Positions 57,708 through 60,556 of a DNA stretch of 64,000 nt are shown piece after piece; positions within the stretch are counted from its first letter, which is position 1, and every line of letters begins with the position of its first letter. The DNA comes from Hydrotalea sandarakina. GTDB lineage: Bacteria > Bacteroidota > Bacteroidia > Chitinophagales > Chitinophagaceae. The DNA lies in assembly GCF_003254115.1 (NCBI RefSeq), contig NZ_QKZV01000006.1, positions 62,001-126,000 of the forward strand, in the 5' to 3' direction. A program made the position numbers and the translations under genes. Below the pieces are notes generated by a model. That model was given only the letters and a program-made list of their open reading frames with translations, ran no database searches and was not told the DNA's origin.

Positions 57708-59189
57708 TCATTTCAAATCTTTACTTAAGAACTTTTCAGCAATATTTAGATAAAGTTTTCTTTTTGTTTCAGGCCATTTATTAAAATTTTGTACCAACAT
57801 ATTCATCCGAACATTTGTGCTAAAATAATCTGCATGCTTGTGTATAAAACGCCAAAACAGTGCATCCCATATTTGTTGCCAATGACCTTTGGGGTAATTA
57901 CTCATCTTTAAAATGTAATTACTTCCGCTTATGTAGGGTTTGGTTGCCATTATTCCACCATCGGCAAACTGACTCATGCCATACACATTAGGTACCATAA
58001 CCCAATCATAAGCATCTATAAATAATTCCATAAACCATTTATATACAACATTTGGGTGCAATTCACACAACAACATAAAATTGCCTAAAATCATTAATCG
58101 TTCAATATGATGGCAATACCCGGTTTCCAACACTTTGCGAATAGTAAAATCGATGGGTGCTATTCCGGTTGTACCGTTATAAAATGATGAAGGAATATCA
58201 TTTTTTTGATGCTCCCAAAAATTAGCATTACGCATACGTGTTCCTTGTAATTCATATACTGCCCTAATGAATTCTCGCCATCCGATAATTTGACGAACAA
58301 AACCTTCTTGTGAATTTATTGGAATAATTTGCCGTTCTACAGAATGTAAAAACTCATCTACTATTTGTTGGGGTGTAAGCAATCCATTATTCAACATGGG
58401 TGATAGAACACTATGGAATAAAATATTTGAACGCACATCTATGGCATCTTCATAAGCACCAAAATGGTAAAATCTTTCACTTAAAAATTGCCGCAACCAG
58501 TGTTTACTTTCACTATGTATTACCGGGTAAAACCCATTGAATGGCATTGACCCCGGGTTATTTGGATAATGTTGCTGAACATAATCAATGGCCTCTTTTA
58601 CATATTGATTAATTGGCAATAAATTCGTTACGGGTGGAATTTGATTAGTTGGATAACGTAGTCTGTTTGCTGCATCAAACGACCATTTCCCCCCAACGGG
58701 AGATAAATTAGCATCTACCAAAATTTTCCATTTTTTTCGTTGAAAGCGATAAAAATCGGTTTGAAACATTTTAGTGGTTTTACCAAAAAATTCTTTCAAA
58801 CTTTCCAAATCATTTAAAAACAAAGGTGATGGCCATTGCTTTAAATGTATTTGACATTTTAATGCGGTTTGTTGTATTCTTTTTTGTAACCAATTATCTG
58901 TGGTATCAATGTAAGTAATGGAATGAAACCCTTGCTCCTTCAAATAAGGTAATAATAATCGTATATCAGAAAGAGGGTTATTAGCATCAATATAAACAAC
59001 TTTTTTGTGTTTTTTTTGTAAATAAGCTTCATAGTATTTCATGGAAGCTCGATGGAAAATAAGCTTTTGCCGATGAAAATTGAATTCACGAAAAAACAAA
59101 TATTCTTCTACTAAATAAATCACTTCAGCTTCATTCATCAAAACGCTTTCTTCAAACAATTGATGCGGAAAAACAATAGCTACAGACAT
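57708..59189 (-). CDS. Photolyase-related protein (FeS-BCP/PhrB subfamily) without the cluster cysteines
   Basis: This 493-residue flavoprotein-family member has an N-terminal alpha/beta antenna-like domain (SVAIVFPHQLFEES, VYIDANNPLSDIRLLLPYLKEQG). A C-terminal FAD domain carries GWREFIRAVYELQGTRMR, NFWEHQKNDIPSSFYNGTTGIAPID, TGYCHHIERLMILGNFMLL, DAYDWVMVPNVYGMSQFADGG and TKPYISGSNYI. This is the prokaryotic (6-4) photolyase/cryptochrome group typified by Agrobacterium PhrB. In that group a [4Fe-4S] cluster is bound by cysteines in a YCKGC...C segment; here the aligned stretch reads YPKGHWQQIWDALFW (Pro433, His436), so no ligands remain. The only cysteines lie elsewhere. It starts three bases after the DUF2256 stop codon. 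Confidence 0.9.
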   Translation of the reverse strand: MSVAIVFPHQLFEESVLMNEAEVIYLVEEYLFFREFNFHRQKLIFHRASMKYYEAYLQKKHKKVVYIDANNPLSDIRLLLPYLKEQGFHSITYIDTTDNWLQKRIQQTALKCQIHLKQWPSPLFLNDLESLKEFFGKTTKMFQTDFYRFQRKKWKILVDANLSPVGGKWSFDAANRLRYPTNQIPPVTNLLPINQYVKEAIDYVQQHYPNNPGSMPFNGFYPVIHSESKHWLRQFLSERFYHFGAYEDAIDVRSNILFHSVLSPMLNNGLLTPQQIVDEFLHSVERQIIPINSQEGFVRQIIGWREFIRAVYELQGTRMRNANFWEHQKNDIPSSFYNGTTGIAPIDFTIRKVLETGYCHHIERLMILGNFMLLCELHPNVVYKWFMELFIDAYDWVMVPNVYGMSQFADGGIMATKPYISGSNYILKMSNYPKGHWQQIWDALFWRFIHKHADYFSTNVRMNMLVQNFNKWPETKRKLYLNIAEKFLSKDLK

Positions 59190-59192
59190 TCA

Positions 59193-59351
59193 TTATTTGT
59201 TTTTTTGTTTTCTACATTTTTCGCTACAGTATTTCACTTCTGACCAAACAGATGCCCATTTTTTTCTCCATGTAAAAGGTCGTTGACAAACAACACAAAT
59301 TTTTTGAGGTAAATACTGTTTATTAGCCTTAAATGTATTTTTTTTCGACAT
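59193..59351 (-). CDS. DUF2256 family zinc-ribbon-like mini-protein
   Basis: This 52-residue frame is read from ATG 59351. The sequence matches the DUF2256 pattern: [15 protein letters not shown], then [15 protein letters not shown], with two CxxC-like cysteine pairs (CVVC and CSEKC) that could bind a metal. Three bases separate it from the photolyase-related gene, so the two are translationally close. DUF2256 genes are, to my knowledge, frequently next to photolyase/cryptochrome-related genes. Function is unknown. Confidence 0.86.
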
Positions 59352-59460: not shown

Positions 59461-59471
59461 TTACGAAAACG

Positions 59472-59555
59472 TGCCCAGGACTGGATTCGAACCAGCACAT
59501 CCTTTCGGACGCTGCGACCTGAACACAGTGCGTCTACCAATTTCGCCACCTGGGC
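59472..59555 (-). tRNA. tRNA-Leu (CAG anticodon)
   Basis: The minus strand reads GCCCAGG (acceptor 5' side), a D-arm GTGGCGAAATTGGTAGACGC, an anticodon stem-loop CTGTG-TTCAGGT-CGCAG (anticodon CAG), a long class II variable arm, a T-arm with GGTTCGAATCC, and CCTGGGC plus discriminator A. The long variable arm and CAG anticodon identify leucine. CCA is not encoded (ACG follows), so it depends on the CCA-adding enzyme. It has its own promoter and terminator. Confidence 0.95.
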
Positions 59556-59572: not shown

Positions 59573-59603
59573 CAAATATACTTTCATTTAAGTAACCAAC
59601 AAA
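59573..59603 (-). promoter_or_regulatory. Near-perfect Bacteroidota promoter of tRNA-Leu
   Basis: On the minus strand TTTG (59603-59600), a 19-base spacer and TATATTTG (59580-59573) match the -33/-7 consensus exactly. The mature tRNA begins 17 bases downstream. The -33 element lies inside the last codons of the upstream LuxE-like gene. Confidence 0.82.
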
Positions 59604-60556
59604 CTGCAACCTCTTATGTCACTATTATCTAAACGGCCTAATACTTCAAAACTTCCATCATCATATACTTTCCCAACATCTTCAGTAGCAATAAAACTGC
59701 AGCTATACAAATTAGCTAAATCAATAATATTCAAAATCCCTTCACCCGATGCCTTTATCTGCAGTGGGTCATCTTCATCACGCACCAGCACCCGCATCCA
59801 CGGTGGGCAATAAAAACGCCCCCTACCCTTTGAATAAGCCTGCGATAGTAATTCCGTCATACCATATTCCGCATGTATAGCGGGCAAATTAAATGCTGCC
59901 ATAAGTGTTTGGTGCAAAGCTTCGCGGGTAATTTCTTTACGTCTTCCTTTCATACCCCCCGTTTCCATAATAACGGTATGTTTCAATGGTTGAGGATATT
60001 GTTCGGCAAAATCGAGTAAAGCAAAAGTTACTCCAATTAACAAAACCGGTTGTTCGGCAGCCTCTAATGCTTTTAGCGTTGCAGCCAGTTGAGCATAATT
60101 ATATAAATAAAACCCACTTTGTGGATGATTGGATAGTTTAATTAAGGCATCCACCATTGTTACCAACGACGAATTCGGCCTTTCTAAATACGCAGGCAAT
60201 AAACCAATGATACACCAATTTTTAGGCGAGCCATAAAATTGTTCAAAGGCTTTTAAAAAACTTTCTTCGTATATGGCAATACTTTTAACCCAGTGCCGGC
60301 TATTAATGGTTCCGGTTGTACCACTGCTTTCAAATACTGCTTCGGGCTGAAAGCTTGTGGTAGTAATGGTTTTAGATTTAAAAAAGGAAATGGGCAAAAA
60401 AGGGATTTTTTCAATGGAGGCAGCATTTTTATTTCCGGTTAAATCAACCCATTGAGCATAAACAATGTTATTAGCATATTGAAATTGAAATATTTCGTTT
60501 GCCAATGCAGAAAACGAGGACTCAGAAATTGAAAAAATCTTGTTAAGAAGTTCCAT
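59588..60556 (-). CDS. LuxE/PaaK-like acyl-protein synthetase family protein
   Basis: This 322-residue protein resembles the LuxE acyl-protein synthetase/adenylate-forming family: IPFLPISFFKSKTI, the nucleotide-binding VFESSGTTGTINSRHWV, VIMETGGMKGRRKEITREALHQ, HAEYGMTELLSQAYS, and the C-terminal EGILNIIDLANLYSCSFIATEDVG. LuxE activates fatty acids as acyl-AMP in bioluminescence operons, but no lux genes are present here. A role in activating a carboxylate for surface glycan or lipid synthesis is possible. The gene diverges from a small lipoprotein. Confidence 0.84.
   Translation of the reverse strand: MELLNKIFSISESSFSALANEIFQFQYANNIVYAQWVDLTGNKNAASIEKIPFLPISFFKSKTITTTSFQPEAVFESSGTTGTINSRHWVKSIAIYEESFLKAFEQFYGSPKNWCIIGLLPAYLERPNSSLVTMVDALIKLSNHPQSGFYLYNYAQLAATLKALEAAEQPVLLIGVTFALLDFAEQYPQPLKHTVIMETGGMKGRRKEITREALHQTLMAAFNLPAIHAEYGMTELLSQAYSKGRGRFYCPPWMRVLVRDEDDPLQIKASGEGILNIIDLANLYSCSFIATEDVGKVYDDGSFEVLGRLDNSDIRGCSLLVT

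What the first reader, a model, noticed from the sequence alone, without database searches (positions are those of the whole stretch)
57708..59351. Photolyase-related protein that has lost the iron-sulfur ligands, coupled to a DUF2256 mini-protein
The protein has the FAD-domain signatures of the FeS-BCP/PhrB group, but the segment that carries YCKGC and a later cysteine in PhrB reads YPKGHWQQIWDALFW. The protein's only cysteines lie elsewhere. Loss of a normally defining [4Fe-4S] cluster raises the question of whether it still repairs (6-4) photoproducts, acts as a light sensor, or uses another stabilising device. The neighbouring 52-residue DUF2256 protein, with its own two cysteine pairs, is three bases upstream and could substitute a metal site or act as an accessory subunit.
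Basis: partly seen in the sequence, partly recalled or inferred. Interest (0 to 1): 0.6.

Follow-up and report, generated by a model that had tools for sequence, protein, structure and literature searches.

The report
Iron-sulfur-free 6-4 photolyase beside DUF2256
This is very probably a light-driven DNA-repair enzyme of a bacterial family that does without the iron-sulfur cluster its best-studied relative seems to need for folding, and it sits next to a tiny zinc-finger-like protein that tends to occur in the same genomes as such enzymes whether or not they carry a cluster.

Summary
The 493-residue protein is a prokaryotic (6-4) photolyase in which all four [4Fe-4S] ligands of PhrB are gone (C350→P345, C438→P433, C441→H436; the C454 segment is deleted). 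Three bases upstream lies a 52-aa DUF2256 protein.

It is not a single degenerate gene. In 152 usable Bacteroidota homologues the ligands are CCCC in 95 and absent in 57, with no intermediates. The cluster-free form is one fully supported clade outside the sampled FeS enzymes, including eight from other phyla. All 139 cluster-free sequences examined (137 distinct) keep the PhrB residues for repair (H366, Y424, Y430) and Mg2+ (D179, D254); 137 of 139 carry a Trp (W437) in the shortened loop. It most likely repairs (6-4) photoproducts without a cluster.

FeS-free prokaryotic (6-4) photolyases are already in print (PromaPL; 'subgroup M'): a new member of a known kind. The motif around the first ligand resembles ordinary photolyases, so the cluster may never have been there; rooting is unresolved.

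DUF2256 does not replace the cluster: it accompanies both types (31 of 40 and 81 of 92 genomes). It co-occurs strongly with this photolyase family (112 of 132 versus 13 of 263 genomes). My searches found no paper on this link.

The parts
57708..59189 (-). FeS-free prokaryotic (6-4) photolyase, 493 aa: DPRP domain (aa 5-215) and photolyase FAD domain
   Evidence: AF2 model pLDDT 90.0, pTM 0.91; TM-score (query) 0.93 to PhrB 4dja
58155..58157 (-). codon of P345, at the place of PhrB ligand C350; within the motif T341-G342-I-A-P345-I-D347
   Evidence: P in 137 of 139 cluster-free rows, C in 103 of 103 FeS rows
57867..57893 (-). codons P433-W441: short loop replacing the segment with PhrB C438, C441 and C454; W437 and W441 conserved
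   Evidence: pLDDT block 431-440 = 94
58107..58109 (-). codon of H361, counterpart of the essential PhrB H366
   Evidence: H in 139 of 139; role of H366 from PMC4619345
59193..59351 (-). DUF2256 protein, 52 aa, C-x2-C ... C-x3-C with a basic WRKKW stretch; three bases upstream of the photolyase start
   Evidence: Cys pattern in 122 of 127 DUF2256 hits examined

Best explanation
The gene pair encodes a light-dependent (6-4) photoproduct repair enzyme of a cluster-free lineage of prokaryotic (6-4) photolyases, plus a small TRASH-type zinc-finger protein that belongs to the cell's photorepair gene set. Inferred mechanism: FAD is photoreduced through W385 (PhrB W390) and Y337 (PhrB W342). Blue or near-UV light then drives an electron from FADH- to the lesion, H361 handles the proton, Y419 and Y425 hold the lesion, and D172 and D248 bind Mg2+. 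The roof subdomain that PhrB holds together with [4Fe-4S] is held here by a shortened loop with conserved W437 and W441. DUF2256 is not a replacement ligand set; most likely it is an accessory, nucleic-acid- or protein-binding factor used with both FeS and FeS-free photolyases. Shown: ligand absence, clade structure, residue conservation, fold prediction, gene pairing, co-occurrence. Inferred: repair activity, role of the Trp residues, zinc binding and function of DUF2256.
For: Ligands absent in 57 of 152 usable Bacteroidota homologues, present as CCCC in the other 95. One split with support 100 in a tree built without the ligand columns, and again with 8 FeS enzymes from other phyla. H366, L370, M410, Y424, Y430, D179 and D254 of PhrB kept in 139 of 139 cluster-free rows; W390 in 138. 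W437 and W441 each in 137 of 139. Confident predicted fold without a cluster, TM 0.93 to PhrB. DUF2256: present in 112 of 132 genomes with DPRP and 13 of 263 without; within one family, sampled nearly one genome per genus, 23 of 26 versus 6 of 72; immediately adjacent in 41 of 80 named cluster-free loci, median gap 0 upstream. PhrB H366, Y424, Y430, W342 and W390 functions: PMC4619345 (abstract and first part of the results read).
Against: No biochemistry. W342, needed for PhrB photoreduction, is Tyr here and in 82 of 139 rows. PhrB Cys mutants were insoluble or not expressed (PMC4619345), so something must compensate, and that is not shown. Antenna residues S35 and E38 of the Caulobacter enzyme align with E28 and F31 (PMC12082625), so the antenna may differ or be missing. 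DUF2256 is absent from 20 of 132 DPRP genomes and present in 13 without DPRP; the control genome Haloferax has DPRP but no DUF2256. It co-occurs about equally well with other photolyase-like genes, and all 29 DUF2256 genomes of the family also have a PF00875 photolyase, so its partner is not identified. 35 of 80 named loci have no DUF2256 in the flank. Its model is only moderately confident (pLDDT 79.3), with no significant fold match.
Confidence: 0.75

Rival explanations
1. It is a light sensor (bacterial cryptochrome) rather than a repair enzyme, like the signalling role reported for R. sphaeroides CryB.
For: The FeS relative CryB regulates gene expression according to PMC9178010 (passage). 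Photoreduction residue W342 is Tyr in 82 of 139 rows including this one.
Against: Every tested lesion, proton-transfer and Mg2+ residue is kept in 139 of 139 rows. Of five neighbouring window ORFs scanned, none shows a signalling domain. In some related loci the neighbours are other photolyase-family genes.
Confidence: 0.12
2. Secondary loss: the ancestor had the four-Cys cluster and this lineage lost it, with W437/W441 as the fix.
For: All 8 sampled FeS enzymes from other phyla and all 95 Bacteroidota FeS forms carry four Cys. An ancestral cluster has been proposed in print (views cited in PMC9498864 and PMC9649867, passages). One FeS row, L154, has S-G and D around its Cys, so the motif alone does not exclude passage either way.
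Against: The cluster-free clade is outside the sampled FeS enzymes. With other photolyases as outgroup the FeS enzymes form one clade and the outgroup falls among the cluster-free rows, but that branch is saturated (length about 10). T341, G342 and D347 together are kept by 137 of 139 cluster-free rows, while G is absent from 102 and D from 101 of 103 FeS rows.
Confidence: 0.4
3. DUF2256 supplies a substitute metal site for the missing cluster.
For: Four cysteines and immediate adjacency here.
Against: Equally present with FeS-type enzymes: 81 of 92 versus 31 of 40 genomes. Nine of 40 cluster-free genomes have no DUF2256. Caulobacter and S. elongatus controls have both DPRP and DUF2256, and solved DPRP enzymes of these two organisms are FeS-type (PMC12082625, PMC9178010).
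Confidence: 0.03
4. DUF2256 serves another member of the photorepair set (a short photolyase-like or a second-type photolyase), and its link with this enzyme is indirect.
For: In one family DUF2256 goes with short photolyase-like ORFs in 20 of 21 genomes and with a second photolyase type in 11 of 12; it overlaps a second-type photolyase ORF in L159, with no DPRP in that 7-kb stretch nor in that genome (G432).
Against: Genomes with DPRP but neither of the others still carry DUF2256 in 4 of 6, against 2 of 68 with none of the three; direct adjacency to the cluster-free gene in 41 of 80 loci.
Confidence: 0.35

Closest known systems
FeS-BCP (6-4) photolyases: PhrB (4dja), CryB (3zxs), Cc(6-4)PL (9hnk), SePhrB (8ijy), V. 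cholerae enzyme (7ykn)
   Same: Domain order, fold (TM by query length 0.87-0.93), lesion, proton-transfer and Mg2+ residues
   Different: No Cys ligands, shortened loop with W437, TG...D motif at ligand 1, often W342 to Tyr; separate clade
FeS-free prokaryotic (6-4) photolyases: Prochlorococcus PromaPL and 'subgroup M' (PMC9178010; PMC9426592)
   Same: Same wider family without the four Cys, by the text of those papers
   Different: Common ancestry with PromaPL untested: its sequence was not obtained. Bacteroidota are not named in the main text of PMC9178010 (term search), though 'multiple lineages' may include them
DUF2256 (PF10013), TRASH clan
   Same: Full-length Pfam match; clan assignment from PMC4047054 (passage)
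   Different: No function described in the passages of the two papers found that name it

Membership tests
FeS-BCP subtype | Four Cys ligands of the [4Fe-4S] cluster | tested here: not met
FeS-BCP subtype | Falls within the FeS clade in a tree | tested here: not met
   separate clade, support 100
FeS-BCP subtype | Fe-S cluster present in the protein | not testable with these tools
   needs purified protein
Prokaryotic (6-4) photolyases, whole group | DPRP domain plus photolyase FAD domain | tested here: met
   both over the curated cut-off
Prokaryotic (6-4) photolyases, whole group | His366 and Tyr424/Tyr430 of PhrB | tested here: met
   H361, Y419, Y425, 139 of 139 rows
Prokaryotic (6-4) photolyases, whole group | PhrB-like fold | tested here: met
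   predicted model, TM 0.93 to 4dja
Prokaryotic (6-4) photolyases, whole group | Light-dependent (6-4) repair | not testable with these tools
   needs an assay
Subgroup M / PromaPL | Absence of the four Cys | tested here: met
Subgroup M / PromaPL | Common clade with PromaPL | not tested
DUF2256 | PF10013 match and two Cys pairs | tested here: met

The most novel reading that the evidence does not exclude
DUF2256 is a dedicated zinc-finger accessory of bacterial photorepair, serving (6-4) photolyases with and without the iron-sulfur cluster; and the cluster-free clade is an original lineage of prokaryotic (6-4) photolyases, so the [4Fe-4S] cluster was added later in the FeS branch rather than being the ancestral core of the family.
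Probability: 0.25. Interest if true: 0.7.

Novelty: new member of a known kind. Interest (0 to 1): 0.42.

Why it matters
What the [4Fe-4S] cluster does in prokaryotic (6-4) photolyases is called unknown in PMC12082625 (abstract as listed), and PhrB with mutated ligands is insoluble or not expressed (PMC4619345). A natural clade of more than a hundred sequences with the tested active-site residues but no ligands gives a ready comparison set for separating a structural role from a catalytic one. The two tyrosines said to lie between cluster and lesion in PhrB are kept although the ligands are not, which argues that they do not act through the cluster. The DUF2256 co-occurrence offers a testable function for a common family of very small bacterial proteins.

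Tried and rejected
Rejected: DUF2256 as cluster substitute. Four alternative Cys ligands. One-off degeneration. Phage origin: no match in the annotated phage collection; the single match in IMG/VR is distant (L285, 37% identity).

Led nowhere: rooting with DASH and second-type photolyases gave an outgroup branch of about 10 changes per column, too long to trust; L280 and L150 were left out there, and the outgroup attached among the cluster-free rows, so that these needed two changes. The fold search for DUF2256 gave no significant match (best YacG on gyrase, E=0.65, and an FCS zinc finger, E=0.86). No coordinates of the models were seen in the Python box, so packing of W437 in the cluster cavity was not measured.

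Flaws to know: the script failed to find the first ligand column, so that column stayed in and a few columns near the start were dropped instead; searches removed it properly. One search also warned of long branches (L280, L150). L058 is a fragment and was left out; L139 is cut before the loop. Two pairs among the 139 cluster-free rows are identical in their cores (L126/L208, L054/L260), so 137 are distinct. The 37 DUF2256 rows were picked with a pattern that requires the first Cys pair, so their invariance there is partly built in; over the 127 hits the four-Cys pattern holds in 122, and of the five others L244 and L273 really depart, while L055 and L174 are cut by an end of the stretch and L245 begins inside the motif. 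The 'short photolyase-like' and 'second-type' labels rest on partial or weak matches to TIGR02765 and PF00875; second-type members were checked by Pfam and NCBIfam in L104, L158, L159, L172 and L174, the short ones not at all. Genera are not independent data points. Of 87 plasmid records with a match I fetched 10.

Full report
What is there. On the minus strand the window holds a 493-aa ORF (57708-59189) and, three bases upstream, a 52-aa ORF (59193-59351). The first matches Pfam DPRP and the photolyase FAD domain, the second DUF2256. The genome has one match to each family. The eight distinct solved sequences found by phmmer are PhrB, CryB, and the Caulobacter, Synechococcus and Vibrio enzymes and mutants, the FeS-type (6-4) group by the papers named below. 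Aligned with them, the four PhrB ligands C350, C438, C441 and C454 fall on P345, P433, H436 and Q439, and most of the stretch between C441 and C454 is missing. The only cysteines are C112, C359 and C375.

How widespread. DPRP occurs in 132 of 395 Bacteroidota genomes and in 26 of 98 genomes of the window's own family. I aligned 153 distinct proteins from these searches, the window included. Ligand states: CCCC in 95, no Cys in 57, one fragment (L058) not classed; nothing in between (L139 is cut before ligands 2-4). The cluster-free proteins share GI-x-P-[IV]-D at ligand 1 and a short KGxW-x3-WD loop in place of ligands 2-4; L150 departs from both. All 80 lack the ligands, as do two Persicobacter plasmid copies; eight plasmid-borne relatives from cyanobacteria (3), an actinomycete (1) and proteobacteria (4) have all four. 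These ten are a part of 87 plasmid records with a match.

Phylogeny. FastTree on 152 rows without the ligand columns splits cluster-free from FeS with support 100 and one change. A mixture-model tree of 81 rows with the eight outside enzymes again makes the cluster-free group one clade (100), while Bacteroidota FeS forms mix with those of other phyla (with the flaw told under Tried and rejected). So, on this sample, the cluster-free group is not a recent loss inside the Bacteroidota FeS enzymes. Rooting with DASH and second-type photolyases leaves the FeS enzymes one clade (100) and puts the outgroup among the cluster-free rows, but on a saturated branch. A character that does not depend on branch lengths points the same way: the second-type photolyases and the solved photolyases and plant cryptochromes aligned with one of them read T-G-x-P-x-[VI]-D-A here, though the two DASH genes L104 and L017 lack the G; 137 of 139 cluster-free rows keep T341, G342 and D347 together; of 103 FeS rows, all with Cys at ligand 1, one (L154) has both G and D and one more (L152) the D. 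The Pro of the cluster-free rows stands one place later than that of other photolyases, so the match is in T, G, [IV] and D. Gain of the cluster in the FeS branch is therefore a serious alternative to loss. I do not regard it as settled.

Function. PMC4619345 (abstract and first part of the results read) reports H366 and Y424 of PhrB essential for repair, Y430 needed for efficient repair, W342 and W390 needed for photoreduction, and Cys mutants insoluble or not expressed. H366, L370, M410, Y424, Y430, D179 and D254 are kept in 139 of 139 cluster-free rows, W390 in 138; W342 is Tyr in 82 and Trp in 57; Y391 is Phe in all, as in 44 of 95 Bacteroidota FeS rows. The Mg2+ role of two Asp residues comes from the title of Ma et al. 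2019 as cited in PMC9426592; that they are D179 and D254 is recalled. AlphaFold gives pLDDT 90.0 and pTM 0.91, with 94 over residues 431-440 but under 60 over 401-420; the model matches PhrB at TM 0.93. W437 and W441 are each present in 137 of 139 rows; where W437 stands, FeS rows have a gap in 101 of 103. I infer a repair enzyme whose roof subdomain is held by this aromatic loop. The contact itself was not measured. Antenna residues S35 and E38 of the Caulobacter enzyme (PMC12082625, section 18 read) align with E28 and F31, so the antenna may differ.

DUF2256. Within the fetched stretches it adjoins the photolyase gene on the same strand in 14 of 57 cluster-free and 10 of 95 FeS loci (flanks were often only about 1.5 kb, and the limits used were -250 to +300 bases). 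Among the 80 named cluster-free loci it is immediately upstream in 34 and immediately downstream in 7, median gap 0 upstream, elsewhere in the flank in 4; 35 have none in the flank, 5 of these with short flanks. By genome: both DPRP and DUF2256 in 112, DPRP only 20, DUF2256 only 13, neither 250 of 395. Cluster-free genomes 31 of 40, FeS genomes 81 of 92. In the window's own family, sampled nearly one genome per genus, 23 of 26 versus 6 of 72. Control: PF00875 photolyases are in 75 of 98 genomes; 46 of these lack DUF2256, but all 29 DUF2256 genomes have one, so DUF2256 occurs only with some photolyase yet does not follow every photolyase. It follows short photolyase-like ORFs (20 of 21) and a second photolyase type (11 of 12) about as well as DPRP. 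In locus L104 it stands beside a CRY-DASH gene, this gene and the second type. So it belongs to a photorepair gene set, and its direct partner is open. It is a TRASH-clan domain (PMC4047054, passage); the C-x2-C...C-x3-C pattern holds in 122 of 127 hits. The top but non-significant fold matches are YacG and an FCS zinc finger. That it binds zinc is inferred.

Known or new. PMC9178010 (section 13 and passages read) divides 110 prokaryotic 6-4 photolyases into seven subgroups and says that only subgroup M (20 members, multiple lineages, including Prochlorococcus PromaPL) lacks the four Cys. PMC9426592 (passages) repeats that PromaPL lacks the cluster, citing Ma et al. 2019 (not held). PMC12082625 (passages) says several orthologues miss the ligands, citing Portero et al. 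2019 (not seen). Absence of the cluster is therefore known; the Bacteroidota clade may or may not be part of subgroup M. A link between DUF2256 and photolyases was not found: the one-term search returned two papers, neither of which contains the word photolyase in its main text, and of the 20 papers listed none has DUF2256.

Noticed in passing
L285:2944-4410 (IMG/VR contig, 83 kb): A viral contig carries a FeS-free (6-4) photolyase, 37% identical to the window protein, with ligand-1 region TGMPPVDA. Beside it are a fused DHFR-thymidylate synthase, a NUDIX protein and a sub-threshold AP-endonuclease-type match, which suggests (not shown) a large eukaryotic DNA virus.
   Followed up: partly
L158:1389-3589 and L157:2743-3614: A DUF2071 gene lies directly before DUF2256; in L158 it stands between a second-type photolyase and DUF2256.
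   Followed up: no
L104:1701-5999: A run of photolyase-family genes on one strand (second type, cluster-free 6-4 type, CRY-DASH) with DUF2256 just upstream, and a further 472-aa ORF not identified.
   Followed up: partly
G000:C10:24631-25206 and G000:C2:189774-190241: The window's genome also has an ORF (373 aa) matching only the FAD half of the CRY-DASH model, possibly a short photolyase-like protein, and a PF00875 photolyase gene (452 aa).
   Followed up: no
L150:4026-5474: An outlying cluster-free member without the GI-x-P-[IV]-D motif and without the loop Trp.
   Followed up: no
L154:3174-4808 (-) and L152:4019-5680: FeS-type members with all four Cys that keep parts of the ordinary photolyase motif around ligand 1 (G and D in L154, D in L152), perhaps useful for the gain-or-loss question.
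   Followed up: no
window 59471-59555 (-): tRNA-Leu (cag) lies just upstream of the DUF2256 gene on the same strand, the only tRNA that ARAGORN finds in the window; beyond it is a LuxE-domain gene at 59588-60556.
   Followed up: no
window residue C375 (codon 58065-58067): A Cys kept in 133 of 139 cluster-free rows and in none of the 95 Bacteroidota FeS rows; its role is unknown.
   Followed up: no
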